This document shows, in pieces, positions 19,836 to 38,034 of a stretch of DNA of 64,000 nucleotides. Position numbers and translations under genes: made by a program. Every line of letters begins with the position of its first letter. Position 1 is the first letter of the stretch. Origin of the DNA: Devosia lacusdianchii (GTDB lineage: Bacteria; Pseudomonadota; Alphaproteobacteria; Rhizobiales; Devosiaceae). A model generated the notes under the pieces. The model ran no database searches, had not been told where the DNA came from, and saw only the letters and a program-made list of their open reading frames with translations. The stretch is from positions 1,054,001-1,118,000 of the forward strand of contig NZ_CP092483.1 of NCBI RefSeq assembly GCF_022429625.1. Direction: 5' to 3'.

Positions 19836-20003
19836 GGAATGCCCTGTCTGCCTTACGGCCCGGTCTAGGCCAGCAGCCTCCTCTTCGCAAGCTCCCCCGT
19901 AGATCGTTTTCCGAGCGACTTTACAAAGTTTGTGCAACGGTCTACAGAGAACGTTATACGAAATGGCGCGAGCAGACGCCAGAGACTTTTTGGAGGACCT
20001 TTC

Positions 20004-22385: not shown

Positions 22386-22444
22386 TCGAACAGGCGGCGG
22401 CATGAACAGTCCGCACGGTGCGGGCACAAATGGGAGAGAGACCA

Positions 22445-23743
22445 ATGACCAAGACTTCACGCAGGACCGCGCTTGCCGGTCTGTCCGCCGGGCTGCTGGC
22501 AATGACGGCGCTGACCGGCGCAGCCTTTGCCCAGAGCATCAACCTGACCTACCTGATACCCAGCGGCGCCGATGGCGTTGCCGTTGCCGAGGAACTGGTG
22601 AAGTCGTTCGAAGCGGCCAATCCCGATATCAACATCGATATCGAAACCCGCCCGGGCGGCTCCGAGGGCGACAACCTCGTCAAGACCCGCTTGGCCACTG
22701 GCACCATGGCTGACGTGTTCCGCTACAATTCGGGCTCGCTGTTCCAGGCGATCAACCCCCAACAATTCCTGGTCGACCTCACCAACGAGCCGTGGCAGGC
22801 CGACGTGCAGGCCTCGTTCAAGCAGGTCGTGACAGCGCCGGATGGCACCGTGCGCGGCGCTCCGATGGGTGCGGCCATGGGCGGCGGCATCTATTACAAC
22901 CGCGATATCTACGAGGAACTGGGCCTCAGCGTGCCCACGACCTGGGCCGAGTTCATGGCCAACAACGAGAAGATCAAGGCCGCCGGCAAGGTCGCCGTGA
23001 TCCAGACCTATGGCGACACCTGGACCAGCCAGCTCTTCGTGCTTGCCGACTACTTCAACGTTTCGGCCAAGGACCCCAACTTCGCCAGCCGCTACACCGC
23101 CAACGAGGCCAAGTTCGCCACCGACGCGGCGGCTCTGCGCGGCTTCGAAAAGCTGCAGGAATCGTTCGAGGCCGGCTTCTTCAACGAGGATTTCGGCGCC
23201 GCCAAGTATGACGACGGCATCCGGATGATCTCCGCCGGCGAGGGCGCGCACTATCCTATGCTGACCTTCGCGACGACGGCCATCGCGGCCACCTATCCCG
23301 AAAACATCGCCAATGTCGGCTTCTTCGCCCAGCCGGGTGATGACGCGGCGCTGAATGGACTGACCGTGTGGATGCCCGATGGGCTCTACATTCCCCAGAC
23401 CACAGCCAACATGGATGCGGCCAAGAAGTTCGTGGCCTTTGTCGCCAGCGTCGAAGGTTGCGATGCCCAGACGCGCGCCGGTGGCGCCTCGGGCCCATAC
23501 CTGGTCAACGGTTGCACCCTGCCGGCTGACGTACCGCCTGCCGTGACCGACATGCTGCCCTACTTCGCCGAAGGCGGGCAGAACGGCCCGGCTCTCGAAT
23601 TCCTGTCGCCGATCAAGGGGCCGGCGCTGGAACAGATCACCGTCGAAGTCGGCTCGGGCATCCGCCCGGCGGCAGATGGCGCTGCTCTCTACGACGAGGA
23701 CGTGCGCAAGCAGGCTCAGCAGCTGGGCCTCCCGGGCTGGTAA
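22445..23743 (+). CDS. Extracellular sugar-binding protein (CUT1, SBP_bac_1)
   Basis: 432 residues. The signal peptide MTKTSRRTALAGLSAGLL to AFAQ contains a twin arginine, so Tat export is possible. The mature protein has the SBP_bac_1 features: INLTYLIPSGADGVAVAEEL, FEAANPDINIDIETRPGG, ATGTMADVFRYNSGS, AMGGGIYYNRDIYEELGL. The ATG follows GGGAGAGAG. It captures a (probably rhamnose-containing) oligosaccharide or glycoside for the permeases encoded next, with the GH78 enzyme upstream in the same operon. Confidence 0.9.
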   Translation: MTKTSRRTALAGLSAGLLAMTALTGAAFAQSINLTYLIPSGADGVAVAEELVKSFEAANPDINIDIETRPGGSEGDNLVKTRLATGTMADVFRYNSGSLFQAINPQQFLVDLTNEPWQADVQASFKQVVTAPDGTVRGAPMGAAMGGGIYYNRDIYEELGLSVPTTWAEFMANNEKIKAAGKVAVIQTYGDTWTSQLFVLADYFNVSAKDPNFASRYTANEAKFATDAAALRGFEKLQESFEAGFFNEDFGAAKYDDGIRMISAGEGAHYPMLTFATTAIAATYPENIANVGFFAQPGDDAALNGLTVWMPDGLYIPQTTANMDAAKKFVAFVASVEGCDAQTRAGGASGPYLVNGCTLPADVPPAVTDMLPYFAEGGQNGPALEFLSPIKGPALEQITVEVGSGIRPAADGAALYDEDVRKQAQQLGLPGW

Positions 23744-23757
23744 GCGCTTGCACATGA

Positions 23758-23793
23758 GGCGGCCCTGGGTGTCTGGTCTCTCCCGGGACCGCC
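23758..23793 (+). terminator. Intercistronic hairpin after the CUT1 binding-protein gene
   Basis: Arms GGCGGCCCTGGG and CCCGGGACCGCC pair over 12 positions with one mismatch and one G-U. There is no T tract. It lies 15 bases after the binding-protein stop, a position shared with other importer operons here. Confidence 0.5.
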
Positions 23794-23812
23794 GTCTCTG
23801 GAGGAGAAGCCG

Positions 23813-24727
23813 ATGGCAGTCATGACACAAGCCGGCACGGCCGAGCTGGCCACGCCTGTGCCCACGCTCAAGCGCCGCTCGCCCTATCCGGGATGGTTCT
23901 TCCTGCCCGCGGCGATCATCTACGGCGTGCTGTTCCTGGTGCCGACGGTCGCTTCGCTTTATTTCAGCCTGACGCGCTGGACGCTGTTCAACTCGACCTT
24001 CATCGGCTTCGACAATTTCGCGCAGTTCCTGCGCGAGCCGTTCCTCATCAAGGGGCTGATCAACACCGTGCTCTATGCGGTGATCACCTCGTCCCTCAAG
24101 GTCATACTGGGCCTGCTGCTGGCCGTGTTGCTGACCAGCCAGGTCGCCGCTCGCGGTTATCTGCGCTCGGTGGTGTTCTTCCCGGTGCTGGTGTCGACGG
24201 TCGGTGTGGGCATCACCTTCACCGTGCTCATGCATCCCACCAATGGCATGATCAACGAAGGGCTGGCGCTGCTCGGCATCAAGGGCCCAGGCTGGCTCAC
24301 CAATCCCAATCTGGCGCTATTCTCGGTCGCGCTGGTGGATGTGTGGAAGGGCGTGGGCCTGGCCACCGTCATCTACATTGCCGGCATCGTCGCCATCCCC
24401 AAGGACTATTACGAAGCCGCCCGCATCGATGGCGCGACCAAGCTGCAGAATTTCTTCTACGTCACGCTGCCACTTTGCCGGCCGGCAACGGTGACCGTGA
24501 TCACGCTGAGCTTCATCGGCGGCCTCAGGACCTTTGACCTGATCTGGGCCATGACCAAGGGCGGTCCCGGCTTTGCCTCCGACACCGTCGCTTCGGTGAT
24601 CTACAAGCAGTATCAATCAGGCTTCTACGGCCTGTCGACTGCCGGCAATGTGGTGCTGTTCGTGCTCATCGCGGTGCTGGTGGTTCCGCTTACCATGCTG
24701 CTCAACCGCAAGGAGGGGCACCAATGA
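23813..24727 (+). CDS. Sugar ABC transporter permease (MalF/UgpA type)
   Basis: 304 residues with six predicted membrane spans (first WFFLPAAIIYGVLFLVPTVAS) and the EAA loop YYEAARIDGATKLQNFFYVTLP. GGAGGAG precedes the ATG. The stop overlaps the next permease start by 4 bases. Confidence 0.93.
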   Translation: MAVMTQAGTAELATPVPTLKRRSPYPGWFFLPAAIIYGVLFLVPTVASLYFSLTRWTLFNSTFIGFDNFAQFLREPFLIKGLINTVLYAVITSSLKVILGLLLAVLLTSQVAARGYLRSVVFFPVLVSTVGVGITFTVLMHPTNGMINEGLALLGIKGPGWLTNPNLALFSVALVDVWKGVGLATVIYIAGIVAIPKDYYEAARIDGATKLQNFFYVTLPLCRPATVTVITLSFIGGLRTFDLIWAMTKGGPGFASDTVASVIYKQYQSGFYGLSTAGNVVLFVLIAVLVVPLTMLLNRKEGHQ

Positions 24728-25551
24728 GCTTCGTTCGCCGCCATTGGCTCAGCGCCCTCGCCATCCTGCTGTCGATCGTCGTGTTCCTGGTCCCGTTCGC
24801 CTTCATCATCCTGACGGCATTCAAGGACCAGAAGCAGTCGGCACTACTCGACTTCTCCTGGCCGGCCGGCAATCATTTATGGAGCAACATCGTCGAGGTG
24901 GTGACCACCCGCAACTGGATGCTGCTGACGGCCTTCATCAACTCCACCATCCTCACCGTCGCCAGCGTCACCCTCTTGGTCATCTTCTCCGCCATGGTCG
25001 GCTTCGTGCTGCAACGCCGCAAGACGCGGTGGAATGGCCTGATCGAATTTCTCATCCTGGCCGGGCTGATGATCCCGCCGGCGGTGGTGCCCACCATCTG
25101 GCTGCTGCAGGGCACAGGCCTCTTCGCCAAGCTGCATGGCATGGTGCTGATCGAGGTGGCCTATTCGCTGCCCTTCTCGATCCTGCTCTATCGCGCCTTC
25201 ATCTCGACCATTCCGCGCGAACTTGACGAGGCGGCCATCATCGACGGCGCGCGGCCGGCGGACGTGTTCTTCCGGGTCATCCTGCCGCTGCTCTGGCCGG
25301 TGACCGTCACCAATATCGTGGTGCAGTCGGTTGCCATCTTCAACGACTTCACCAACCCGCTTTACTACCTGCCGGGCAATGCCAACGCGACGGTGCAGCT
25401 GACGCTCTACAATTTCCAGAGCCAGTACAACACGTCCTACAACCTGCTCTTCACCAACATCCTGCTGATCACCATTCCGCCGCTGATCGTTTTCCTGTTC
25501 TTCAACCGGCAGATCGTGGCGGGGATGACCGCTGGCGCCGTCAAGGGATAA
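24724..25551 (+). CDS. Sugar ABC transporter permease (MalG/UgpE type)
   Basis: 275 residues, six membrane spans, EAA loop [20 protein letters not shown] followed by ILPLLWPV. It overlaps the previous permease by 4 bases, so the two are translationally coupled. It forms the translocation pore with the MalF-type partner. Confidence 0.93.
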
Positions 25552-25556
25552 TCCAC

Positions 25557-26645
<1,089 letters not shown>

Positions 26646-26675
26646 GCGCGCCATCAAAGTTATCCGCGTCTTCCG

Positions 26676-26707
26676 GGCGGCGTGCCAACATAGGCGCGCC
26701 GCCTTTT
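26676..26707 (+). terminator. Rho-independent terminator ending the rhamnoside operon
   Basis: Eleven-base arms GGCGGCGTGCC and GGCGCGCCGCC (one G-U pair) around a 6-base loop, then TTTT. It starts 31 bases past the ATPase stop. The rest of the 295-base gap to the next gene carries the 26873 palindrome and presumably a promoter. Confidence 0.8.
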
Positions 26708-26872
26708 CTTGTGCGTCGCTGGCCCAGTGCAACAGACCGGCCTCACGCCCCTGATGGTTCACCAAGCTGCTGAGCCCCACAGATTATTTCGCCGCCGCGC
26801 TGATAGTCGGCGCAAATGCCCTCCAACACGCTACGCAGGCTTGACGCGATCGCCAGGGAAATTCCTGTTGCA

Positions 26873-26888
26873 TAGTCAAGTTTGATTA
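26873..26888. promoter_or_regulatory. Candidate PadR operator, copy 1
   Basis: TAGTCAA-GT-TTGATTA, an inverted repeat with one mismatch, 52 bases before the GTG of the binding-protein gene. It matches the perfect palindrome at 31834-31849 in 13 of 16 positions, and both are AT-rich islands in GC-rich DNA. Confidence 0.6.
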
Positions 26889-26940
26889 TATTACATGGTT
26901 CTATTCTCGCAGCCATAAGCGAGGAAGGTTGGAGGAAATC

Positions 26941-28056
26941 GTGATTCAGGGACCCACTAGCCGTGGCCGGTCCGCGATCGGTTTTGGTCGCGTCGCCGCG
27001 GGTATCGCCGCACTTGCCGTAACCGTCGCTGCCTGTTCGCCGGAGGCGCCCAAGACGGATGAGCTCGCGTCCAACGTGCTGATCAGCGCGGCCGACTGCG
27101 AGCGCAACAAGGCCGCTGGAACCATCACCTATGTGTCGGGCTACGGCTATTCGGCGAGTGCCGGCCAGTTGGACGTGTTCCTGGCCAAGGAGCTCGGCTA
27201 TTTCGATGCTCTGTGCCTGACAGTGGACATCAACGCCGCCGGCGGCAGCGGCCAGCAACTGGTCTCGTCGGGGCAGGCGCAATTCACTGCGCTCGGATCG
27301 GCATCCGACGTTATCCTCGCCGCCGCCAACAGCCGCAACCTGACGGCCGTAGCGACCTATGGCAGCACCTCGCCCTTCTCGATCTTCGCCAATGAGAGCG
27401 TCAAGTCGCTGAAGGATCTCGAAGGTCGCAAGCTCGGCTACTTCATCAATATCACCCCGATCGCCATGGCCATGCTCGACGCCGCCGGCGTCGACCTCGC
27501 CAAGGTCGAGCTGATCAAGATGACCAATTACGACCCCACCGTGGTCACGCGCGGGCAGGTCGACGCCATTGTCGGCTATGCCTCGAACCAACCGCAGACG
27601 CTCAAGGCCATGGGCCTGCCATTCAGCGAATTCCGCCCGTCCGATTTCGACCTGCAGGGCACCTACAATGTCATGGAGGTCAACTCCGAGTTCCTGAGCG
27701 AGCATCGCGAGACGGTCGCCGACTTCATGCGCGCCACACTCAAAGCGCTCGAACTCTGCCTCGCCGAAGAGGCCACTTGCGTCGAAAAGATCAGCAAGCT
27801 GGCCGCGGACAACAATCAGGGCGGCGCCTTCCCGGCGGAGCAACAGGCCCGCACCTGGGGCGTGGAATCGTCCTGGGTTCGCGCCAGTGCCTTCGGCGCT
27901 CCGGGCGTGCAAACCGAAGAAGAGTGGCAGAACGAGTACGAGATGGTGCAGGCCTATGGCGGCCTAGAGAACCCTCCGCCGCTTGCCGACATGATGGATA
28001 CGGACCTGGTTGCCTCCCTTTATGCGGATGGCAAGCTGCTCTGGCCCGGGAACTGA
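26941..28056 (+). CDS. ABC transporter substrate-binding lipoprotein (NMT1/THI5 type), candidate riboflavin binder
   Basis: 371 residues. The N-terminus has a hydrophobic stretch ending in the lipobox VAAC (Cys32), so it is anchored as a lipoprotein. NMT1/THI5-like features are VFLAKELGYFDALCL, SSGQAQFTALGSASDVIL, LKDLEGRKLGYF and a C-terminal helical part. The GTG at 26941 has GGAGG five bases upstream; a TTG 12 bases earlier is less likely. Relatives bind flat heterocycles or their precursors (ThiY, RibY) or sulfonates. With the flavin enzymes that follow, riboflavin is the most economical ligand (inference). Confidence 0.85.
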   Translation: MIQGPTSRGRSAIGFGRVAAGIAALAVTVAACSPEAPKTDELASNVLISAADCERNKAAGTITYVSGYGYSASAGQLDVFLAKELGYFDALCLTVDINAAGGSGQQLVSSGQAQFTALGSASDVILAAANSRNLTAVATYGSTSPFSIFANESVKSLKDLEGRKLGYFINITPIAMAMLDAAGVDLAKVELIKMTNYDPTVVTRGQVDAIVGYASNQPQTLKAMGLPFSEFRPSDFDLQGTYNVMEVNSEFLSEHRETVADFMRATLKALELCLAEEATCVEKISKLAADNNQGGAFPAEQQARTWGVESSWVRASAFGAPGVQTEEEWQNEYEMVQAYGGLENPPPLADMMDTDLVASLYADGKLLWPGN

Positions 28057-28063
28057 GGGCGAT

Positions 28064-28894
28064 ATGCTCAGCGCTAGCAACGATCACTTGGCCACGCACG
28101 ACGATACGGACGCCCTTGGTGTCCATGTCGAGGCCGTTTCCAAGAGCTACGGGGTCGATGAGCGGCGCTCCACCGTTCTCGACCGCGTCAGCCTGACCAT
28201 CCGCAAGGGCGAGTTCGTCTCGGTCATCGGCCCAAGCGGCTGCGGCAAGTCCACATTGCTCAAGGTCATTGCCGGGCTTTCCGGCGCTGACAGCGGGCGG
28301 GTGAGCATCAACGGCAAATCGGTGCGCGACGCCACGCGGGACAAGGCCGTAGGCCTCGTGCCACAGGCGCCGGCGCTGCTGCCCTGGCGGACCATCAAGG
28401 AAAACGTGACCCTGCCGATCACGATCAATCCGTCCGCCAATTCAGGCCGCAACCTGCGCGACCCCGAGGAGCTGTTGCGCAGCTTCGGGCTGGGACACGC
28501 CATCGATCGCTATCCATCCCAGTTGTCCGGCGGCATGCAGCAACGCGCCGCGATCGCCCGCGCCTTCGTGTTCGATCCCGAAATCCTGCTGATGGACGAA
28601 CCGTTCTCCGCGCTCGATGAGATGAACCGGGATCAGCAGCGCATGGGCCTGCTCGATTTCTGGCAGTCCAACCGCAAGTCGGTGCTGTTCGTCACCCACT
28701 CGGTTCCCGAGGCGATCATCCTGTCCGACCGCATCGTGCTGATGGCCGCCCATCCCGGGCGTATTGCCGAAATCATCGATGTCGACCTGCCCCGTCCGCG
28801 CGACGAGGCCATGTATGCCAGCGACGCCTTCCGAGACCTGGAAACCCGGGTCCGCGCCTCTCTGCACAAGGTGATGGGAGCAAACCATGCCTAG
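28064..28894 (+). CDS. ABC transporter ATP-binding protein (TauB/SsuB/ThiZ type)
   Basis: 276 residues. Walker [10 protein letters not shown], signature LSGGMQQRAAIARAF, Walker B ILLMDEPFSALDEM, H-loop FVTHSVPEAI. It starts 8 bases after the binding-protein stop and overlaps the permease start by 8 bases. It energises the importer encoded at 26941-29711, the candidate riboflavin uptake system. Confidence 0.92.
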   Translation: MLSASNDHLATHDDTDALGVHVEAVSKSYGVDERRSTVLDRVSLTIRKGEFVSVIGPSGCGKSTLLKVIAGLSGADSGRVSINGKSVRDATRDKAVGLVPQAPALLPWRTIKENVTLPITINPSANSGRNLRDPEELLRSFGLGHAIDRYPSQLSGGMQQRAAIARAFVFDPEILLMDEPFSALDEMNRDQQRMGLLDFWQSNRKSVLFVTHSVPEAIILSDRIVLMAAHPGRIAEIIDVDLPRPRDEAMYASDAFRDLETRVRASLHKVMGANHA

Positions 28895-29711
28895 CGATAC
28901 CGTGGCGCCCACCGCCACCACTTCGGGTTCGTCTCTGCGTCGCGACGCCATCGACCTGGCCTGGGGCTGGGGCTTGCCGGCGATGACCTTCATCATCGTT
29001 GCTGTACTCTGGCAGCTCGTCGCCATCAGCAATCCCTACGTGTTGCCGACGCTCGATGCTATCGGCAACAGCCTGGTGGAATCGCCCGGCATGTATTGGG
29101 CCAACCTGCTCGTCACCTGCCAGGAAATCGTCATCGGCGCCGGGGCCGGAATCCTCTTCGGCTTCCTGCTCGCTGTCGCCATGGCCGAACTGCCAGCCAT
29201 CGAGAAGGCCGTCATGCCGCTGATCGTGGTAGTCATGGTCACCCCGGTGGTCGCTATCGCCCCGGCGCTCGTCGTGGCGTTCGGCTTCGGCATGATGCCC
29301 AAGTATATCGTGACCGGGCTGGTCGTGTTCTTCCCCATGCTGGTCAACTCACTCGCGGGGCTCCGCGATGTCGACCAGAAGGCGCTCGACGTCTTCAAGA
29401 CGCTGCATGCCAGCCGCTGGGAAACCTTCCGCGACCTGCGCTTCCCCGGCTGCATGCCCTTCGTCTTCGCCGGCCTGCGCATTGCCATGCCGCTGGCCGT
29501 GGTGGGGGCGGCGGTGGCCGAGTTCGTGGCCGCCGGTCAGCAGGCGGGTCTGGGCTCCCTCGTGACCATCGCGGCCGCACAGGCCAACCTGCCAGTAACC
29601 TGGGCCAGCATCACGCTGCTCTGCCTGCTCGGCGTGACGCTGGTCTCGGTGCTGGCGCTGCTGCGCAAGCGCGTCCTCTGGTGGAGCGACCAGGACGTGA
29701 TCGGGCGCTAG
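28887..29711 (+). CDS. ABC transporter permease (TauC/SsuC/ThiX type)
   Basis: 274 residues with six membrane spans (TFIIVAVLWQLVAISNPYVL first) and the EAA-like loop VFKTLHASRWETFRDLRFPG typical of taurine/nitrate/thiamine-precursor permeases. The stop codon lies in the middle of a perfect 16-bp palindrome (29702-29717, CGGGCGCT/AGCGCCCG), which may stabilise or attenuate the message before the monooxygenase gene 42 bases downstream. Confidence 0.92.
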   Translation: MPSDTVAPTATTSGSSLRRDAIDLAWGWGLPAMTFIIVAVLWQLVAISNPYVLPTLDAIGNSLVESPGMYWANLLVTCQEIVIGAGAGILFGFLLAVAMAELPAIEKAVMPLIVVVMVTPVVAIAPALVVAFGFGMMPKYIVTGLVVFFPMLVNSLAGLRDVDQKALDVFKTLHASRWETFRDLRFPGCMPFVFAGLRIAMPLAVVGAAVAEFVAAGQQAGLGSLVTIAAAQANLPVTWASITLLCLLGVTLVSVLALLRKRVLWWSDQDVIGR

Positions 29712-29753
29712 CGCCCGGTCCACCTCAACATTTCCAAATTCCTGACGAAAGCG

Positions 29754-31112
29754 ATGATCATGAAGAAGCTCCGCTTTGGGCTGTTCGAAAACGCGCAGAC
29801 CAACGACTCCGGCACGTCCACCTGGCGCCATCCAGATAGCCAGCGTCACCTGTTCGATACGCTGGGCTACTGGCGCGAGATCGCCCGGATTTGCGAAGAC
29901 GCCAAACTGGACTTCCTGTTCCTGGCCGATGCCTGGGGCTGGGCGGACGTGAAGGGCCAGCGCCCCGAAATCTGCTCGCTTGAAGGGCTCGACCTGCCGC
30001 GCCTCGACCCGGCCATCGTTGCCGCAGCGATTGTTGGCGCCACCTCGAAGCTGGGCCTGGTCATCACCGGCTCGACCCTGCTCGAGCAGCCCTACGCCTT
30101 TGCCCGCCGCATGCAGAGCCTCGACCATCTCTCAGGCGGCCGCGTGGGCTGGAACGTCGTCACCACGGGCACCGCGGAAACTGCCGTTGCCGCCTTTGGC
30201 GTGCCCATGGTGGCCCATGATGCACGCTACGACATGGCCGACGACTTCATGGAACTCGTCTACAAGCTATTCGAGGGCGCCTGGGAAGCCGGCTCGCTCG
30301 AGCGAGACAAGGCCGGGCGCTTTGCCGATCCGTCCAAGGTCCACGCCATCGCCCATGACGGTCCGTTCTTCCGCTCGCACGGCTATGGCAACACCAACTA
30401 CTCACCGCAGGGCACGCCGGTTCTGTTCCAGGCCGGCTCCTCCGATCGCGGTCGCCAGTTTGGCGGCCGGCACGGGGAATGCGTGTTCCTCGGCGGCGGC
30501 TCGATCGAGAAACTTGCCAGCCAGGTCAAGTCGATCCGCGAAGAGGCTGAGGCCAACGGGCGCGATGGCAATTCGATCAAGATCATGAGCGCCTTCTCCT
30601 GCGTGGTTGCGAGCACCGAGGCCGAGGCGCAGCGCAAGCATCGCGAAATCCTCGATGCGCAAACGCCGGAAGTCGCCGTGGCATCCTATGCCTGGTTTAC
30701 CGGGCTCGATCTGTCGTCCTACGATCCGGCGACCAAGATGAGCGCGCTCCACACCGAGCTGTCGCAGACCCAGGTCGCGCGCTTTGGCGACAAGACCGTG
30801 GGCGACGTGCTCAAGGATTGGCACGCGCATGGCGTGCGGACCAACCCGTTCGTCGGAACGCCCGAACAGATCGCCGACATCATGTGCGAAATGGCCGAAG
30901 GCGCGGATCTCGACGGCTTCCTGTTCACCCCGCTGATCCAGCCGGCCTCGACGATCGATTTCGTCGCGCAGGTCCTGCCGGTGCTGCGGGCACGCGGTGT
31001 GGCGGCGACGGACTACGAAGGCGAGACGCTGCGCGAACGCCTGCTGGGCACGCCGACGCCGGTCCTGCGCGATGATCATCCTGGCTCCGGCTATCGCAGC
31101 CTCTCGGCCTGA
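29754..31112 (+). CDS. LLM-class flavin-dependent monooxygenase (NtaA/SnaA/DszA family), candidate riboflavin lyase
   Basis: 452 residues, the usual size of the two-component NtaA/SnaA/DszA group, which uses FMNH2 supplied by a separate reductase. Landmarks are KLRFGLFENAQTNDSG at the N-terminus, LAGADAWG-like FLADAWGWAD, the family signature FARRMQSLDHLSGGRVGWNV, PVLFQAGSSDRGRQFGGRH and a C-terminal DGFLFTPLIQP. An ATG at 29760 is an alternative start. RcaE of Microbacterium maritypicum, which splits riboflavin into lumichrome and ribose, belongs to this broad superfamily and likewise works with a flavin reductase and riboflavin kinase, both present here. Sulfur- or nitrogen-compound oxidation is the alternative. 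Confidence 0.85.
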   Translation: MIMKKLRFGLFENAQTNDSGTSTWRHPDSQRHLFDTLGYWREIARICEDAKLDFLFLADAWGWADVKGQRPEICSLEGLDLPRLDPAIVAAAIVGATSKLGLVITGSTLLEQPYAFARRMQSLDHLSGGRVGWNVVTTGTAETAVAAFGVPMVAHDARYDMADDFMELVYKLFEGAWEAGSLERDKAGRFADPSKVHAIAHDGPFFRSHGYGNTNYSPQGTPVLFQAGSSDRGRQFGGRHGECVFLGGGSIEKLASQVKSIREEAEANGRDGNSIKIMSAFSCVVASTEAEAQRKHREILDAQTPEVAVASYAWFTGLDLSSYDPATKMSALHTELSQTQVARFGDKTVGDVLKDWHAHGVRTNPFVGTPEQIADIMCEMAEGADLDGFLFTPLIQPASTIDFVAQVLPVLRARGVAATDYEGETLRERLLGTPTPVLRDDHPGSGYRSLSA

Positions 31113-31152
31113 CATGGGCCCGGCGCCAGCCACCAGAGTTGGTTGGCGCCGA

Positions 31153-31752
31153 TCACGCCTGTGCCGGGGCAGGCGGGGCTCTGTTGCCCTCGCCGGCAAA
31201 GACGTATTCCCCGGCATTGATCCGCTCGAACAGCCCCTTCGACCATTCCTGCTCGGCACGCAGGCGCAGCGAGGAGAGTTCGAAGATCTCCCGCACATAG
31301 GAGGGCGTGGTGCTCGATCGCTTCACGTCGCCAATGTCAAAGCCGTTACTGGCAATGCGGGCGTCGATCTCGGTCATGCGGAACTTGAGCGCCGCGATCA
31401 CTTCGGACCGGCTGAGCAGGAACATGAACGAGGTGAGGGCCATGACCGGCTTGGTGTCGAAGGTTTCGACGGTCCAGACCGCCTGGCGCAGCAGCCGCAT
31501 CAGCTCGACATCACCCTGTGGCGTGATCTGGTAGATCGTGCGTTCCGGGCGCTTGCCGGAAGCTTCGGTGCCGCTCTCGGCAATGTAGCCGTCCTGCTTG
31601 AGCGAGCGCAGCGCGTTGTAGATCGAGCCCGGCTGGATATTGGCCCACTCGTCGACATGCCACGTCATCAGTTCACGGCGCAGGAAATATCCGTGCACCG
31701 GCTGAAACTGGCGAACAGCTCCGAGAACGACAAGGCGGGTGATCGTCGACAT
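31153..31752 (-). CDS. PadR-family transcriptional regulator
   Basis: 199 residues. The N-terminal winged HTH shows the PadR pattern: VLGAVRQFQPVHGYFLRREL, IQPGSIYNALRSLKQDGYIAE, and RTIYQITPQGDVEL. A longer C-terminal helical domain follows, as in PadR subfamily 2. It is convergent with the monooxygenase gene and divergent from the flavin reductase gene, with a perfect palindrome at 31834 between them. A second copy before 26941 suggests it controls both units. The PadR protein LmrR is reported to bind flat aromatics including riboflavin, so a flavin ligand is plausible. Confidence 0.9.
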   Translation of the reverse strand: MSTITRLVVLGAVRQFQPVHGYFLRRELMTWHVDEWANIQPGSIYNALRSLKQDGYIAESGTEASGKRPERTIYQITPQGDVELMRLLRQAVWTVETFDTKPVMALTSFMFLLSRSEVIAALKFRMTEIDARIASNGFDIGDVKRSSTTPSYVREIFELSSLRLRAEQEWSKGLFERINAGEYVFAGEGNRAPPAPAQA

Positions 31753-31833
31753 GGCGCGAAGCTATGTCAGTTGCGGTGAGCGCACAAGAGAAGCGCTTGT
31801 CGGAAAGCAAGAAATTGAATAGGTTTATTGAAC

Positions 31834-31849
31834 TAGTCAAAATTGACTA
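31834..31849. promoter_or_regulatory. Candidate PadR operator, copy 2 (perfect palindrome)
   Basis: TAGTCAA-AA-TTGACTA, a perfect 16-base palindrome ending 13 bases before the flavin reductase ATG and immediately before its ribosome site (GGAGGGG). It lies in the 110-base divergent promoter region of padR. Confidence 0.7.
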
Positions 31850-31862
31850 TACGGAGGGGTAA

Positions 31863-32369
31863 ATGACGAGTGTGGCGAACGCCGTTCCCAATCAGGCACA
31901 ACTGGCCCTGCGCAAGGCCTTCTCGATGTTTCCCACCGGGGTGGTGGCTGTTTGCGGTCTGGAGGCGAGTGAACCCGTCGGCATGGCGGTCAATTCCTTC
32001 AGCTCGGTTTCTCTTGATCCGCCGCTGGTGTCGATCTGCGTTGCCCGCAATTCCGGCACCTGGCCGCGCCTTTCTGGTCTGCCGCATGTCGGTCTCAGCG
32101 TGCTCGGAGCCGGCCAGGCGCTGCTGTCGCGGCAACTCGCCTCGAAATCGGCCAACCGCTTTGAGGGCGCATCCTGGCAGGCGAGCGACGGCGGGGCAGT
32201 GTTTATCGAAGGCGCCACCCTGTGGCTCGATTGCGCCGTCAGGGACCATTTGGCCGGTGGCGATCACGAGATCGTCCTCCTCGAGGTGCTGACCTCGCGC
32301 CTGTTCCCCGACACCGCGCCCCTGGTATTCCACCAGAGCCAGTATCTCGGCCTGTCCGGCACGGCATGA
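31863..32369 (+). CDS. Flavin reductase (DIM6/NTAB family)
   Basis: 168 residues with the flavin reductase-like split-barrel fold: LRKAFSMFPTGVVAVCG, VGMAVNSFSSVSLDPPLVSICV (the conserved FMN-binding S-S-V-S-L-x-P-P pattern), RFEGASWQ, and HEIVLLEVLTSR. It passes electrons from NAD(P)H to free flavin, giving FMNH2 for the monooxygenase at 29754. It corresponds in role to RcaB of the Microbacterium riboflavin cluster. Its TGA overlaps the ATG of the riboflavin kinase gene (ATGA). Confidence 0.9.
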   Translation: MTSVANAVPNQAQLALRKAFSMFPTGVVAVCGLEASEPVGMAVNSFSSVSLDPPLVSICVARNSGTWPRLSGLPHVGLSVLGAGQALLSRQLASKSANRFEGASWQASDGGAVFIEGATLWLDCAVRDHLAGGDHEIVLLEVLTSRLFPDTAPLVFHQSQYLGLSGTA

Positions 32370-32788
32370 CCAGGGCCGCGCCCGTGGAGCTTTCATCATT
32401 CTCTGGCGTCGTGGTGCACGGCCACAAACGCGGCAGGGTGCTGGGCTTCCCCACTGCGAACATAAGGATGAACGCGGGCGCCTGTTGTCCCCCGGATGGC
32501 GTCTATAGCTGCTGGATCGCACTTGCCGGTTACAGCCAGCTGTGCGGCGCCACGGTCAGCATCGGATATAACCCAACCTTCGACGACGTGCCGGACCGCC
32601 AGGTGGAGGCGTACATCCACGATTTCGATGCCGACCTCTATGGCCAACTCGTCCAGGTGCAGGTGCTGTGTCGGCTGCGCGATATGCTGCACTTCGCCAC
32701 CATCGACGAGCTTGTGGAGCAAACCATGCGCGACGTGGACCAGTCGCGCGCCGTGCAAGCACTCTTGCAAGCCGCAGTTGGCCGATAG
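32366..32788 (+). CDS. Stand-alone riboflavin kinase (RFK domain)
   Basis: 140 residues covering only the riboflavin kinase half of bifunctional RibF. It makes FMN from riboflavin and ATP. Landmarks are VVHGHKRGRVLGFPTANI (GFPTAN at 27-32), PPDGVY (42-47), SIGYNPTF (65-72), and VEAYIHDFDADLYGQ, with the conserved Glu81. No adenylyltransferase domain precedes it: the open frame upstream is the reductase gene in another phase. Bacteria normally use RibF, so a dedicated single-domain kinase coupled to a flavin reductase suggests local FMN supply for the monooxygenase, like RcaA of the riboflavin catabolic cluster. Confidence 0.9.
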   Translation: MTRAAPVELSSFSGVVVHGHKRGRVLGFPTANIRMNAGACCPPDGVYSCWIALAGYSQLCGATVSIGYNPTFDDVPDRQVEAYIHDFDADLYGQLVQVQVLCRLRDMLHFATIDELVEQTMRDVDQSRAVQALLQAAVGR

Positions 32789-32909
32789 CCGGCCGCGATA
32801 GCGCCACGCAGCGAGCCGGACGCACAGGCGCGGTTCGGCCTCGCGCATTGCCTGCCGGTGTCGACGACGCTATAGCAGCGCTCCCGCAGGCCCACAGCGA
32901 GGGAGACGC

Positions 32910-33791
32910 ATGACGACTGACGACATGGAGCGGTTTCGTCCGGCCATCCTGGCTGTGCGTCCAGATCTGGCCGGCTCCACCTTCACACTGGCTACCGCCG
33001 GGTGGGATTCGATCGCGGTGGATGTCGACGACCACCTGATTTTCAAGTTTCCGCGGCACGACGTGGCCGAACGGGCGCTGATCAAGGAGGCCGCCCTCCT
33101 GGCGGAGATACGGCCGAACGTCTCGATGCCGGTACCCAACCTCCGCCTGGTCCAGGGCCCTCCGCTGTTCTCGGTGCACGAAAAGCTGCCTGGAGACCAC
33201 CTTCTCGCAGCGCACTACGACGTGCTGCCCGAGGACGCGCGCCGGCAGCTAGCGGACCTGCTGGGCCAGTTCTACGCCCAGCTTCATCGGCTCGACGACA
33301 AGAGGATGATAGCGGCCGGGGCGGGAGAGGTGGGGGCATGGCAGCCACTGGACGCCATACGTGAACTGGCCTTGCCGCCGCTCGCGTCTGATCTGCGTCG
33401 CCTGGCGGCTGCCACCATCAGCGCATACGAACAACTGCCGCCCGACCCCTACGGCGTGACCTATGGCTATTTCGATGGCCATGGCTGGAACATGGCCTTC
33501 GATCACGCCAACGGTCGCCTGAACGGCCTCTACGACTTTGCCGATTCCGGGGTAGGGCCGCTGCACCGGGAATTCATCTATTCCAGTTTCGTCGCGGCGG
33601 ACCTGACCGAGCGGATCATCACCGCCTATGAGCGCGAGACAGACCGGCCTTTGGATCGTCGCCGCATCTCGATTCTGACCGGCGTCCATCGCCTGTCCGA
33701 ACTCGCCGAACTCATCGACGATCCCGAAAACTCGGCGCTCCTGCTCGCCAATCTGGAAGCCTGGGCCGAAACGGCGGATGGCCTTGCCTGA
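32910..33791 (+). CDS. Aminoglycoside phosphotransferase-fold kinase (APH family)
   Basis: 293 residues. The N-lobe has IFKFPRHDVAERALIKEAAL (ATP-binding lysine, then Glu). The catalytic loop reads YFDGHGWNMAFD where the family has HGDLHPGNIL: the Asp and Asn keep their spacing but the HG is replaced by YF. YDFADSGVGP supplies the metal-binding Asp. It starts 121 bases after the riboflavin kinase gene on the same strand. Its substrate is unknown. Antibiotic resistance is not implied by the fold; in the riboflavin cluster context a role in phosphorylating a breakdown product is conceivable but unsupported. Confidence 0.82.
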   Translation: MTTDDMERFRPAILAVRPDLAGSTFTLATAGWDSIAVDVDDHLIFKFPRHDVAERALIKEAALLAEIRPNVSMPVPNLRLVQGPPLFSVHEKLPGDHLLAAHYDVLPEDARRQLADLLGQFYAQLHRLDDKRMIAAGAGEVGAWQPLDAIRELALPPLASDLRRLAAATISAYEQLPPDPYGVTYGYFDGHGWNMAFDHANGRLNGLYDFADSGVGPLHREFIYSSFVAADLTERIITAYERETDRPLDRRRISILTGVHRLSELAELIDDPENSALLLANLEAWAETADGLA

Positions 33792-33795
33792 TTTA

Positions 33796-33816
33796 ATATG
33801 ACTTAGAAAGTCATAT
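33796..33816. promoter_or_regulatory. Perfect inverted repeat between APH-like and small-protein genes
   Basis: Nine-base arms ATATGACTT and AAGTCATAT around AGA, starting 5 bases after the kinase stop. There is no T run, so an operator for the downstream genes (33887, 34226) is at least as likely as a terminator. Confidence 0.5.
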
Positions 33817-33886
33817 ATGTTGCCAAGACCGCAGCATTGCGGCATATCGAGGCGCGTAACGGTTCCCCCGCTTCAGGACAACAAGC

Positions 33887-34198
33887 ATGCCGTCGATCGA
33901 TCGTGACGCCGCCTTTGCCGCTATCCGGGCTGCCCTGATGTCATCTTATTCCGGATCCTTGGCGTCGACCCGCATGTCGCCGTTGGAAGCGCTGGAATGC
34001 ATGGCGGCCGCCTTGGGCTCGATCTATCGTGAGGTTGCCGACGCTCACATCCACCCCGATGGGTGTCGATGTGGCTGGGTGCCCCATGACGTGCTCGACC
34101 TTGTTGCGTTGGAGCAGGCAATTGCGGCAAATGCAGTCCGCGAGGATTCCGAAGAGGTCTTTGATCTTCGCTCCGTCACACCGGTTGGCCACGGCTGA
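33887..34198 (+). CDS. Small hypothetical protein, 103 aa
   Basis: Not recognised. The sequence is mixed alpha-helical with a conserved-looking DGCRCGWVPHDVLDLVALEQ segment holding a CxC pair, and acidic residues near the end. There is no signal peptide or membrane span. The start is weakly supported (AGGAC upstream). It lies 27 bases before the ABC exporter gene. The long frame on the opposite strand is the shadow of the exporter. Coding status is likely but not certain. Confidence 0.5.
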   Translation: MPSIDRDAAFAAIRAALMSSYSGSLASTRMSPLEALECMAAALGSIYREVADAHIHPDGCRCGWVPHDVLDLVALEQAIAANAVREDSEEVFDLRSVTPVGHG

Positions 34199-34225
34199 GC
34201 GGTACAAAACACAGTTAGTGCCTTC

Positions 34226-35953
34226 ATGATAAAGCGTTTTTTCTCGTATTATGCCCCTTACAAGGGCCTGTTCGTTCTCGACTTCGGCTGCGCGGTGATC
34301 GCCGGCCTGCTCGAACTCGTCTTCCCGCTCGCGGTCGCCTATTTCATCGACCAGCTGCTGCCACGCTCCGAATTCGGCTTCATCCTGATTGCCGGCGCCA
34401 TGCTGCTCGCGATCTATGCGGTCAACGCCGTTCTGCACGCAGTCGTCAACTATTTCGGCCACGTGCTGGGCGTCTCCATCGAGACCGACATGCGCCGCCA
34501 GGTGTTCGATCACCTGCAGAAGCTCAGCTTTCGCTTCTTCGACAACAACAAGACCGGCCATCTGATCACCCACGTCACCAAGGACCTGGAGGATGTTGGC
34601 GAGGTCGCCCACCACGGCCCCGAAGACATCTTCATTGCCGTGATGACCTTTATCGGCGCGTTCGTGCTGATGTTCGTGACCAACTGGAAGCTGGCGCTGA
34701 TCACCACCATCGTGGTGCCCATCGTCACCTGGCTGGTCAGCAAATACGGCTCGCGCATGACGCTGAACTGGCAGGAGCTGTTCGGCCGCGTCGGTGAATT
34801 CAACACCCGTGTCGAGGATTCGATTGGTGGTATTCGCGTGGTGAAGGCCTTCGCCAACGAGGGCCACGAATCCAAGCTGTTCGCCGGCAACAACGAGGCC
34901 TATCGCTCCACCAAACTGCGCGCCTATGCCATCATGACGGCGAGCATCACCATCACCTATCTCAGCACGCGCCTTGTGCAATTGCTGGTTATGCTGGCCG
35001 GCTCCTGGCTCGTCGTCCAGGGTGAGATGAGCTATGGCGGCTTCGTCAGCTTCCTGCTGCTGGTCGAAGTTTTCCTGCGTCCGATCGACAAGATCACCGG
35101 CGTGCTCGAGAGCTATCCCAAGGGTATTGCCGGCTTCCGGCGCTTCACCAAGCTGATCGATACCGAGCCCGACATCGCCGATCGCAAGGGCGCCAAGGTG
35201 GTGACGGCGCTCAAGGGCGATATCGTGTTCAAGGATGCCGCCTTCTCCTACGAGCATGGCCGCAAGGTGCTCGATGGCCTTAACCTTTCGGTCAAAGCCG
35301 GCGAAACCGTCGCCATCGTCGGCCCCTCCGGCGCTGGCAAAACGACGCTCTGCTCGCTCTTGCCGCGCTTCTACGAACTCGATAGCGGCTCGATTTCCAT
35401 CGACGGCATCGACATCCGCGACATGACGCAGTCCTCGCTGCGCAGCCAGATTGGCATCGTGCAGCAGGATGTCTTCCTGTTTGGCGGCACTATCCGCGAG
35501 AACATCGCCTATGGCCAGCTCGGCGCCAGCGACGAGGCCATCTGGGACGCGGCCAAGCGTGCCCGGTTCGACACCGTGATCAAGCGTCTGCCCGATGGCC
35601 TCGACACCATGGTCGGCGAGCGCGGCGTCAAACTCTCGGGCGGGCAGAAGCAGCGCGTGGCGATTGCCCGGATATTCCTCAAGAACCCACCGATCCTGAT
35701 CCTCGACGAGGCAACATCGGCTCTGGACACGGCAACCGAAGTCGCCATCCAGCGCTCGCTGGCCGAGCTGTCACAGGGCCGCACGACGCTTGTTATCGCG
35801 CACCGCTTGGCGACGATCCAGCATGCGGACCGGATCGTCGTGATCGACGAAACTGGGATTGTCGAGGAAGGCGCGCACGAAGCGCTGCTGGCCAAGGACG
35901 GCGCCTATGCTGTGCTGCACAAGGCTCAGTTCGGTTATCTCGCGGGTAGATGA
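34226..35953 (+). CDS. ABC exporter, fused permease and ATPase (MsbA-like)
   Basis: 575 residues. The N-terminal six-span exporter domain (LDFGCAVIAGLLELVFPLAV first; DMRRQVFDHLQKLSFRFFDN coupling region) is followed by an NBD with Walker A GPSGAGKTT, signature LSGGQKQRVAIARIF, Walker B ILILDEATSALD and H-loop IAHRLAT. It works as a homodimer, exporting lipids, drugs or metabolites. No regulator sits next to it. Position downstream of the flavin genes is suggestive only; the substrate is unknown. Confidence 0.92.
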   Translation: MIKRFFSYYAPYKGLFVLDFGCAVIAGLLELVFPLAVAYFIDQLLPRSEFGFILIAGAMLLAIYAVNAVLHAVVNYFGHVLGVSIETDMRRQVFDHLQKLSFRFFDNNKTGHLITHVTKDLEDVGEVAHHGPEDIFIAVMTFIGAFVLMFVTNWKLALITTIVVPIVTWLVSKYGSRMTLNWQELFGRVGEFNTRVEDSIGGIRVVKAFANEGHESKLFAGNNEAYRSTKLRAYAIMTASITITYLSTRLVQLLVMLAGSWLVVQGEMSYGGFVSFLLLVEVFLRPIDKITGVLESYPKGIAGFRRFTKLIDTEPDIADRKGAKVVTALKGDIVFKDAAFSYEHGRKVLDGLNLSVKAGETVAIVGPSGAGKTTLCSLLPRFYELDSGSISIDGIDIRDMTQSSLRSQIGIVQQDVFLFGGTIRENIAYGQLGASDEAIWDAAKRARFDTVIKRLPDGLDTMVGERGVKLSGGQKQRVAIARIFLKNPPILILDEATSALDTATEVAIQRSLAELSQGRTTLVIAHRLATIQHADRIVVIDETGIVEEGAHEALLAKDGAYAVLHKAQFGYLAGR

Positions 35954-35957
35954 AAGA

Positions 35958-35980
35958 GGGCGGCTTCTGGCCGCCCTTCT
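35958..35980. terminator. Hairpin between convergent genes
   Basis: Stem GGGCGG / CCGCCC with a 7-base loop, followed by a poor T stretch (TTCT). It lies between the exporter stop and the stop of the opposing isomerase gene and may serve both. Confidence 0.45.
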
Positions 35981-35989
35981 ATTGGATGG

Positions 35990-36901
35990 TTACTGCGCCG
36001 CAACCGCTTCCGGCTGATCCAGCCCAGCCAACCGCCGCGCCCGCGCCAGGCTCTCCGGCTGCTCGCTGCGGTGGCGGCGGCCGATTTCCATCATCATGAT
36101 GGTGTCAGGCAAAAACTCGAGTTCGGCAAAGATCGAGTCCCAGTCGATATCGCCCCAGCCGAGCGGCATGTGCAGGTCGCCGATGCCCATGGCGGTGTTT
36201 TCCTGCGGGTGGAACGCCTTGTAGAAGGCCTGCGGGCGGCCGAAGCTGTCATGGACATGCAGGTGCCCGGTAACCGGCGCCATGGCCGCGATCTGCTCGC
36301 GGAAGTTGAGGCCCTTATAGGTGCTCTCGATATAGGCGTGGCTGAAGTCGATCAGCGCGACCACATTGGGATGGTTCACTGCCTTCACCGTCTCGGCCAC
36401 TTCCGCCGGGGTCTGGCGATACTGGCCGGGCTCGGTGGTGAAGATGTTCTCGAAGGCGATGCGCACGCCATAGGGGCGGGCGAAATCGCCAAGCTCGGTC
36501 AGCGCTTCGCGCTCGCGGATATCGGCCTCTGCGCGCTGGTGAATCTGATCGGCCCGCAATGCGCCACCATGCTGCACGAGGATGCGCGCGTCGATGCGGT
36601 CGCAGACCTCGACCAGCGCCTTGGCGGCTTCCATCTGGAACTGGGCGGTGTCGGGATCCATGAAGTTGGACGAGACCAGACCATGCACCGTGTAGCGGAA
36701 ATCGAACTGGCTGGTGATGGCGATCAGGCGCTCGAGACGCTGCGGCAGGATGCGGCCGCCCGAGATCAGGTCGATACCGGTGAGCCCGAGCTCGACCGTG
36801 TCGACGCCGATATCGGCAAGACGGCGCAGATCGGCTTCGAGGCTGAACAATTCGCCGTCGTCGGAACCGGAATTGAAGCCGGTGGCAATGATATTACCCA
36901 T
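35990..36901 (-). CDS. Sugar phosphate isomerase/epimerase family protein (AP endonuclease 2-type TIM barrel)
   Basis: 303 residues. The xylose-isomerase-like barrel is visible: FSLEADLRRLADIGVDTVEL, ILVQHGGAL, VRIAFENIF, VALIDFSHAYIES, GHLHVHDSFG, and DTIMMMEIGRR. His, Glu and Asp of these strands form the metal site. The ATG at 36901 has GGGGAGAG upstream; the longer open frame reaches back into the ugpC gene and is rejected. It is the last gene of the ugp operon, 17 bases after ugpC. It may act on the phosphodiester or polyol phosphate taken up; a glycerophosphodiesterase-like role is possible but unproven. Confidence 0.85.
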   Translation of the reverse strand: MGNIIATGFNSGSDDGELFSLEADLRRLADIGVDTVELGLTGIDLISGGRILPQRLERLIAITSQFDFRYTVHGLVSSNFMDPDTAQFQMEAAKALVEVCDRIDARILVQHGGALRADQIHQRAEADIREREALTELGDFARPYGVRIAFENIFTTEPGQYRQTPAEVAETVKAVNHPNVVALIDFSHAYIESTYKGLNFREQIAAMAPVTGHLHVHDSFGRPQAFYKAFHPQENTAMGIGDLHMPLGWGDIDWDSIFAELEFLPDTIMMMEIGRRHRSEQPESLARARRLAGLDQPEAVAAQ

Positions 36902-36918
36902 AATGTCTCTCCCTGGGG

Positions 36919-38034
<1,116 letters not shown>

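What the first reader, a model, noticed from the sequence alone, without database searches (positions are those of the whole stretch)
26873..32788. Candidate riboflavin uptake and catabolism cluster
The cluster encodes a THI5/NMT1-type ABC importer, an LLM-class flavin monooxygenase, a PadR regulator, a flavin reductase and a single-domain riboflavin kinase. The monooxygenase, reductase and kinase combination mirrors the riboflavin catabolic genes of Microbacterium maritypicum (rcaE, rcaB, rcaA), where riboflavin is split to lumichrome and ribose. Devosia riboflavina is classically known for turning riboflavin into lumichrome. THI5-type binding proteins include the predicted riboflavin binder RibY. 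New here would be an alphaproteobacterial version with its own importer and regulator. No ribokinase is next to it; the APH-fold kinase at 32910 is the only kinase nearby.
Basis: partly seen in the sequence, partly recalled or inferred. Interest (0 to 1): 0.92.

Follow-up and report, generated by a model that had tools for sequence, protein, structure and literature searches.

The report
Vitamin B2 uptake and breakdown cluster
This Devosia-type bacterium carries the known set of genes that splits vitamin B2 into lumichrome and ribose, together with its own uptake pump and a repressor whose likely DNA switch is also found in distant soil bacteria; the enzyme set is known, the uptake and control part is the useful addition.

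Summary
The genes are real and at the stated places. The monooxygenase (29754-31112) is an RcaE-type riboflavin monooxygenase: 352 of 449 aligned residues match the solved riboflavin lyase 5w48, and it groups with it at 100/100 support, apart from LadA, DmoA, HcbA1 and DszA. Devosia riboflavina IFO13584 has the same gene order (monooxygenase 82%) plus a ribokinase, so an alphaproteobacterial version is already known; this is a new member. Importer and PadR gene are not special to this strain: both are in 34 of 34 clusters examined, Devosiaceae and Actinomycetota. Added here: (1) a palindrome, TAGTCAA-NN-TTGACTA, at 26873-26888 and 31834-31849. A matrix from 10 Devosiaceae clusters put its best sites in the same two regions in 24 of 24 other clusters, so one PadR-controlled two-operon regulon is likely. 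(2) Three of the five next-nearest binding-protein relatives sit beside ribF, supporting a flavin substrate. (3) The genome has no lumazine synthase match and an FMN riboswitch before an EamA (RibN-like) gene: a possible riboflavin auxotroph with a riboflavin-degrading module.

The parts
26675..26704 (+). terminator-like hairpin between the upstream sugar-type ABC genes and the cluster
   Evidence: 12-pair stem plus T run, pattern scan only
26873..26888 (.). candidate PadR operator 1 (TAGTCAAGTTTGATTA), before the importer/monooxygenase operon
   Evidence: 1 mismatch to TAGTCAANNTTGACTA
26941..28056 (+). NMT1/THI5-type substrate-binding protein, predicted flavin binder (longer frame from 26929)
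   Evidence: relatives beside ribF
28064..28894 (+). ABC ATPase of the importer
   Evidence: present in 34 of 34 clusters
28887..29711 (+). ABC permease of the importer
   Evidence: present in 34 of 34 clusters
29754..31112 (+). RcaE-type FMN-dependent riboflavin monooxygenase (riboflavin lyase)
   Evidence: 832.9 bits to PDB 5w48; tree
31153..31752 (-). PadR-family regulator, predicted repressor of both operons (position of rcaC by gene order, inferred)
   Evidence: present in 34 of 34 clusters
31834..31849 (.). candidate PadR operator 2 (TAGTCAAAATTGACTA, arms perfect), in the padR/reductase intergenic region
31863..32369 (+). flavin reductase, predicted to supply reduced FMN (RcaB-like)
   Evidence: PF01613; present in 34 of 34 clusters
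32366..32788 (+). single-domain riboflavin kinase (RcaA-like), overlaps the reductase stop by ATGA
   Evidence: PF01687; second copy besides RibF; detected in 28 of 34 clusters

Best explanation
It is an rca-type riboflavin catabolic module of a Devosia-type bacterium, built as two operons under one PadR repressor. Without riboflavin the repressor sits on two TAGTCAA-NN-TTGACTA operators and holds both operons off. When riboflavin (or a flavin made from it) binds the repressor, both are released. The ABC importer brings riboflavin in, the single-domain kinase turns some into FMN, the reductase makes reduced FMN, and the monooxygenase uses that and O2 to cut off the ribityl chain, giving lumichrome and ribose; an unlinked ribokinase feeds ribose to central metabolism. 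Shown here by sequence: membership of the enzymes, and conservation of importer, regulator and palindrome. Inferred: riboflavin as importer substrate, PadR as the protein that binds the palindrome, its ligand, repression as the sense of control, and lumichrome formation by this strain.
For: Monooxygenase: 832.9 bits to the solved riboflavin lyase against 312.9 or less for any other solved protein; 28 cluster proteins plus 5w48 on one branch, 100/100. In 136 Devosiaceae genomes 13 have an orthologue at 69% or more and no other listed match (E <= 1e-30) exceeds 40%. D. riboflavina has the same order. Importer, PadR and reductase linked in 34 of 34 distinct clusters, kinase detected in 28, ribokinase in 16. 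Operator: matrix from 10 Devosiaceae clusters; in 24 of 24 other clusters both predicted regions beat every other place in about 17 kb (six of the 24 fetched after the matrix was fixed). Column-shuffled palindromic matrices averaged 1.54 of 24. In the 4.36 Mb genome the only perfect TAGTCAANNTTGAYTA sites are these two. Next-nearest binding-protein relatives: 3 of 5 beside ribF, none of 17 weaker hits, within the roughly 1.5 kb flanks held. Precedent: PadR-family LmrR binds riboflavin (Kd 0.26 uM), which weakens its DNA binding (PMC4534193 passages).
Against: No FMN riboswitch or other Rfam match at 22000-38000, so the usual mark of a riboflavin importer is missing. The binding protein's nearest solved relatives by sequence and fold are FAMP/HMP and thiamin binders. 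The ribF neighbours resemble each other (68-76% to that of L084) and may count as one event. The kinase competes with the monooxygenase for riboflavin and is undetected in 6 of 34 clusters. I had seen the intergenic regions of the first 28 clusters before the matrix was made, so 18 of the 24 test clusters were not blind; many are near relatives; and one of 300 shuffled matrices also reached 24. No sigma-70-like promoter was found by the simple scan. The PadR model resembles B. subtilis PadR, VanR, Rv1176c and Rv0047c more than LmrR. Operator sites with 2 mismatches in the genome are no commoner than with the reversed control pattern.
Confidence: 0.85

Rival explanations
1. The monooxygenase acts on a sulfonate, dibenzothiophene sulfone, NTA-like chelator or another aromatic compound, and the kinase and reductase only supply FMNH2.
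For: TIGR03860 subfamily is named for NtaA and DmoA; reductase plus kinase would suit any two-component monooxygenase; SsuA-type importers often go with such enzymes (established knowledge).
Against: 78% identity to the solved riboflavin lyase, 36-40% to LadA, DmoA, HcbA1 and DszA; separate 100/100 branch; 198.2 bits to NTA monooxygenase; gene order shared with D. riboflavina.
Confidence: 0.04
2. Riboflavin is degraded as described, but the ABC importer carries another compound (thiamin precursor, or a product such as lumichrome).
For: Nearest solved binding proteins are ThiY-like; no FMN riboswitch; weaker relatives of the protein lie near TPP riboswitches (2 of 20 loci scanned, L095 and L097).
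Against: Importer linked to the monooxygenase in 34 of 34 clusters over two phyla, with the same palindrome; three of the five closest outside relatives beside ribF.
Confidence: 0.1
3. The palindromes are sites of another factor, or the PadR protein is an activator.
For: No binding data; the site is unlike the ATGT-N8-ACAT consensus known for PadR (recalled). Site 1 overlaps a TTGCAT hexamer by one base, so a promoter element could be part of the conservation.
Against: PadR is linked in all 34 clusters and one site lies beside its own gene; the dyad is kept in both regions; site 2 ends 13 bases before the reductase ATG, too near to be a -35 box for that gene.
Confidence: 0.12

Closest known systems
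Riboflavin catabolic cluster of Devosia riboflavina (Kanazawa 2018, text not held; locus L007)
   Same: Gene order importer, monooxygenase, PadR, reductase, kinase; monooxygenase 82%, PadR 86%, importer parts 78-84%; palindromes at the same two places
   Different: D. riboflavina has a ribokinase directly after the kinase; the window has none linked, only an unlinked homologue
rcaA-E of Microbacterium maritypicum G10 (Xu 2016, not held; described in passages of PMC12746152)
   Same: RcaE-type monooxygenase for riboflavin to ribose and lumichrome; kinase and reductase by recall
   Different: The order monooxygenase, ribokinase, PadR, reductase, kinase seen in e.g. L021 and L024 reads as rcaE-D-C-B-A (inferred; M. 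maritypicum itself was not fetched); the window lacks the ribokinase
PDB 5w48/5w4y/5w4z riboflavin lyase
   Same: 352 of 449 aligned residues identical
   Different: None noted; residues around the ligand could not be checked, no coordinates at hand
RibXY(Z) riboflavin importer of Chloroflexus (PMC4418817 passages)
   Same: Binding protein and permease of the sulfonate/nitrate/taurine-type ABC class
   Different: No FMN riboswitch here; linked to degradation genes; identity to RibY not measured
LmrR, PadR-family repressor that binds riboflavin (PMC4534193 passages)
   Same: PadR winged helix; riboflavin weakens DNA binding in LmrR
   Different: LmrR is about 116 aa; this one is 199 aa with a long C-terminal part like PadR, VanR and Rv1176c

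Membership tests
rca riboflavin catabolic cluster | monooxygenase groups with RcaE/riboflavin lyase, not with LadA, DmoA, HcbA1 or DszA | tested here: met
   100/100; NTA enzyme by score only
rca riboflavin catabolic cluster | flavin reductase gene linked | tested here: met
   31863-32369
rca riboflavin catabolic cluster | stand-alone riboflavin kinase linked (variable: detected in 28 of 34 clusters) | tested here: met
   32366-32788
rca riboflavin catabolic cluster | a ribokinase for the released ribose in the genome | tested here: met
   64% homologue at G000:C1:88903-89787, PfkB
rca riboflavin catabolic cluster, subtype with linked ribokinase | ribokinase in the cluster (16 of 34 clusters, so not defining for the family) | tested here: not met
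rca riboflavin catabolic cluster | conversion of riboflavin to lumichrome and ribose | not testable with these tools
   needs enzyme or strain assay
RibXY-type riboflavin importer | NMT1/THI5-fold binding protein with an ABC permease | tested here: met
RibXY-type riboflavin importer | FMN riboswitch before the genes (criterion used in PMC4418817) | tested here: not met
   no Rfam match in 22000-38000; so it is said to work like RibXY, not to be one
RibXY-type riboflavin importer | sequence orthology to Chloroflexus RibY | not tested
   RibY sequence not at hand
RibXY-type riboflavin importer | flavin binding | not testable with these tools
   only indirect: ribF-linked relatives
PadR regulators, larger PadR/VanR-like kind | PadR domain and matching fold with C-terminal helical part | tested here: met
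PadR regulators, larger PadR/VanR-like kind | palindromic operator beside its own gene | tested here: inconclusive
   conserved palindrome present; that PadR binds it was not tested
LLM sulfonate, dibenzothiophene sulfone or NTA monooxygenases | closest to SsuD, DszA, NtaA or DmoA members | tested here: not met

The most novel reading that the evidence does not exclude
The module is not mainly for feeding. In a strain that cannot make riboflavin it is a high-set overflow or denial device: RibN-like uptake behind an FMN riboswitch covers the strain's own need, while the PadR-controlled import-and-cut module switches on only at high riboflavin, removing the vitamin from neighbours and releasing lumichrome as a rhizosphere signal. 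Seven of 13 cluster-bearing Devosiaceae genomes show no lumazine synthase match; carriers do not differ from other Devosiaceae in this (Fisher p 0.56).
Probability: 0.2. Interest if true: 0.72.

Novelty: new member of a known kind. Interest (0 to 1): 0.47.

Why it matters
Passages of PMC12746152 say that no strain is known with RcaE beside lumichrome degradation and raise the idea that lumichrome itself is the purpose. An importer linked in every cluster examined and a testable repressor-operator pair, shared from Devosia to Leifsonia and Nocardioides, give handles to ask when cells cut riboflavin and at what concentration. A possible riboflavin auxotroph that also carries a riboflavin-destroying module makes that question sharper.

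Tried and rejected
Rejected: sulfonate/DBT/NTA enzyme; APH-fold kinase 32910-33791 as the ribokinase (APH family; matched only the window's own DNA among loci searched); FMN riboswitch control of the cluster; importer and regulator as specific to this strain.

Led nowhere or gave little: simple promoter scans; Rfam scan of 20 of the 22 non-orthologous binding-protein loci (L100 and L101 not scanned) found no FMN riboswitch and 2 TPP riboswitches near weak relatives; whether rca carriers differ in lumazine synthase from other Devosiaceae: 6 of 13 against 70 of 123 over the cut-off, Fisher p 0.56, so no link; class-wide search, own genome only among 385 at E <= 1e-120; home-made gene calling of flanks was poor and not used for counts. 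Several fold rows have rmsd 16-18 and are not leaned on; absence of LmrR from the top there shows nothing.

In one search protein files also got into the DNA search set by mistake; only locus rows were used. For the six loci kinase absence means no hit above 60 bits. L009's contig ends just behind the kinase, so a ribokinase there could be missed.

Literature: searches (titles and abstract starts seen); passages of PMC12746152, PMC12934955, PMC4418817, PMC4534193 and PMC8877437, the whole text of PMC5399262. I saw no mention of an rca importer or operator in these, but Xu 2016 and Kanazawa 2018 are not held, so I cannot say that neither is in print.
Full report
Observation. The seven genes are present as described. 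The importer genes and monooxygenase run 26941-31112 (binding protein, ATPase, permease, monooxygenase); padR is on the opposite strand (31153-31752); reductase and kinase follow (31863-32788, overlapping by ATGA). A terminator-like hairpin at 26675-26704 lies between the upstream sugar-type ABC genes and the cluster.

Host. The genome G000 is placed by the tool in the same genus as G039, whose contig of 290,740 bases has the length of that of Devosia riboflavina IFO13584; so the strain is Devosia or very near it.

The monooxygenase. Against solved structures it scores 832.9 bits to 5w48/5w4y/5w4z, 'Riboflavin Lyase', and 312.9 (LadA), 289.9 (DmoA), 265 (HcbA1), 225.7 (DszA), 198.2 (NTA monooxygenase) to others. 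Identity to 5w48 is 352 of 449 aligned residues; to LadA, DmoA, HcbA1 and DszA 36-40%. In a 52-row tree the 28 cluster proteins and 5w48 are one side of a branch (100/100, and in 100% of 200 bootstrap trees), away from 18 Devosiaceae paralogues, L026 and the four other reference enzymes. The tree warns of long branches, most among the outside rows, and the stem of the rca group is itself long (1.9). NtaA and SnaA rows were not in the tree; SnaA was not compared.

Distribution. 13 of 136 Devosiaceae genomes have an orthologue (69% or more); no other match listed at E <= 1e-30 exceeds 40%. In a class-wide sample of 385 genomes only the own genome has one at E <= 1e-120. In Microbacteriaceae 11 of 299 have one at E <= 1e-150, the centre genome included. 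In the tree, ten Devosiaceae clusters including the window's form one clade (100/100) and three more (L022, L067, L068) another (100/90), both among actinobacterial rows; some forks between them are weakly supported, so more than one transfer between phyla is only suggested. Passages of PMC12934955 already give the distribution as Actinomycetota and Devosia.

Known status. D. riboflavina IFO13584 (L007) has the same genes in the same order, plus ribokinase. That organism's two-component riboflavin monooxygenase is the subject of Kanazawa 2018 (10.1128/JB.00022-18), which I could not read and know from citations and recall. Xu 2016 on Microbacterium maritypicum was not held either. PMC12746152 passages describe a five-gene set with RcaE giving ribose and lumichrome, and a mechanism in which superoxide abstracts hydrogen from C1'. 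By recall, RcaA is kinase, B reductase, D ribokinase, E monooxygenase; the order in L021, L024 and others then makes PadR the fifth, RcaC (inference).

Neighbourhoods. I compared 34 distinct clusters: 13 Devosiaceae with the window and 15 Actinomycetota, and six further Microbacteriaceae. Binding protein, ATPase, permease, monooxygenase, PadR and reductase are in 34 of 34. The kinase is detected in 28 (not in L020, L023, L119, L120, L122, L123; one search found only chance matches in L020 and L023). A ribokinase is linked in 16: after the kinase in L007 and L008, between monooxygenase and padR in 14 others, at 37-41% identity to the first, which suggests two separate recruitments. The window's own genome has an unlinked homologue of the first kind (64%).

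Importer substrate. Fold and sequence place the binding protein with ThiY, a thiamin binder and Thi5, which does not fix the ligand. Among 198 Actinomycetota genomes the five next-best relatives (about 28-35% identity) include three, L084, L085 and L102, that lie beside a bifunctional ribF (PF06574 plus PF01687; NCBIfam RibF above cut-off), while none of the 17 weaker loci has a ribF match within the flanks held, about 1.5 kb. The RibF proteins of L085 and L102 are 76% and 68% identical to that of L084, so this may be one lineage. RibXY of Chloroflexus, of the same class, rescued an E. coli riboflavin auxotroph (PMC4418817 passages). I conclude that a flavin is the likeliest ligand.

Physiology. 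The own genome has two riboflavin kinase domains, the one here and RibF. It has no lumazine synthase match (PF00885), while all 14 control genomes do; 79 of 136 Devosiaceae genomes have one at E <= 0.001 (76 over the cut-off), and of the 13 cluster carriers six do (G019, G039, G055, G056, G111, G122). Its one FMN riboswitch precedes an EamA-family gene; RibN, a riboflavin importer of alpha- and gammaproteobacteria, is riboswitch-controlled in the former (PMC4418817 passages; that RibN is EamA-type is recalled). So the strain may need riboflavin, import it by one route, and degrade it by another. Other biosynthesis genes were not searched.

Verdict. A sound reading of the enzymes, an overstated novelty. 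The useful additions are the cross-phylum palindrome, the constant link to a flavin-type importer, and the possible auxotrophy.

Noticed in passing
G000 whole genome; L127:8094-8236 (-) and L127:7013-7990 (-): No lumazine synthase (PF00885) match in a 99.4% complete genome; one FMN riboswitch before an EamA-family (RibN-like) gene: possible riboflavin auxotroph.
   Followed up: partly
L068:11502-13364: In one Devosia-family cluster the riboflavin kinase is fused to a DHA2-type MFS exporter (620 aa; PF01687 plus PF07690): candidate flavin or lumichrome exporter. Among 28 loci searched only L025 has another, distant, unfused match (31%), upstream of its importer.
   Followed up: partly
L084, L085, L102: Binding-protein genes of the same family lie beside ribF (and truB, checked in L084) in Actinomycetota, without an FMN riboswitch at Rfam's threshold: candidate riboflavin importers.
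   Followed up: partly
L007:10989-11885 and L021:9383-10228: Two unlike ribokinases at two different positions in rca clusters (37-41% identical): probably separate recruitments.
   Followed up: partly
Devosiaceae: 57 of 136 Devosiaceae genomes show no lumazine synthase match at E <= 0.001, some of them incomplete genomes, so riboflavin auxotrophy may be common in the family.
   Followed up: no
window 22418-26645: Upstream sugar-type ABC importer genes (binding protein, two permeases, ATPase) behind an 817-aa frame at 19932-22385 that looks like an alpha-L-rhamnosidase (names by eye and recall, not scanned; frames).
   Followed up: no
L007:11931-13794: D. riboflavina carries an ANTAR-like regulator and a nitrate-type binding protein frame directly after the ribokinase (names by eye, not scanned), shared with L008.
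   Followed up: no
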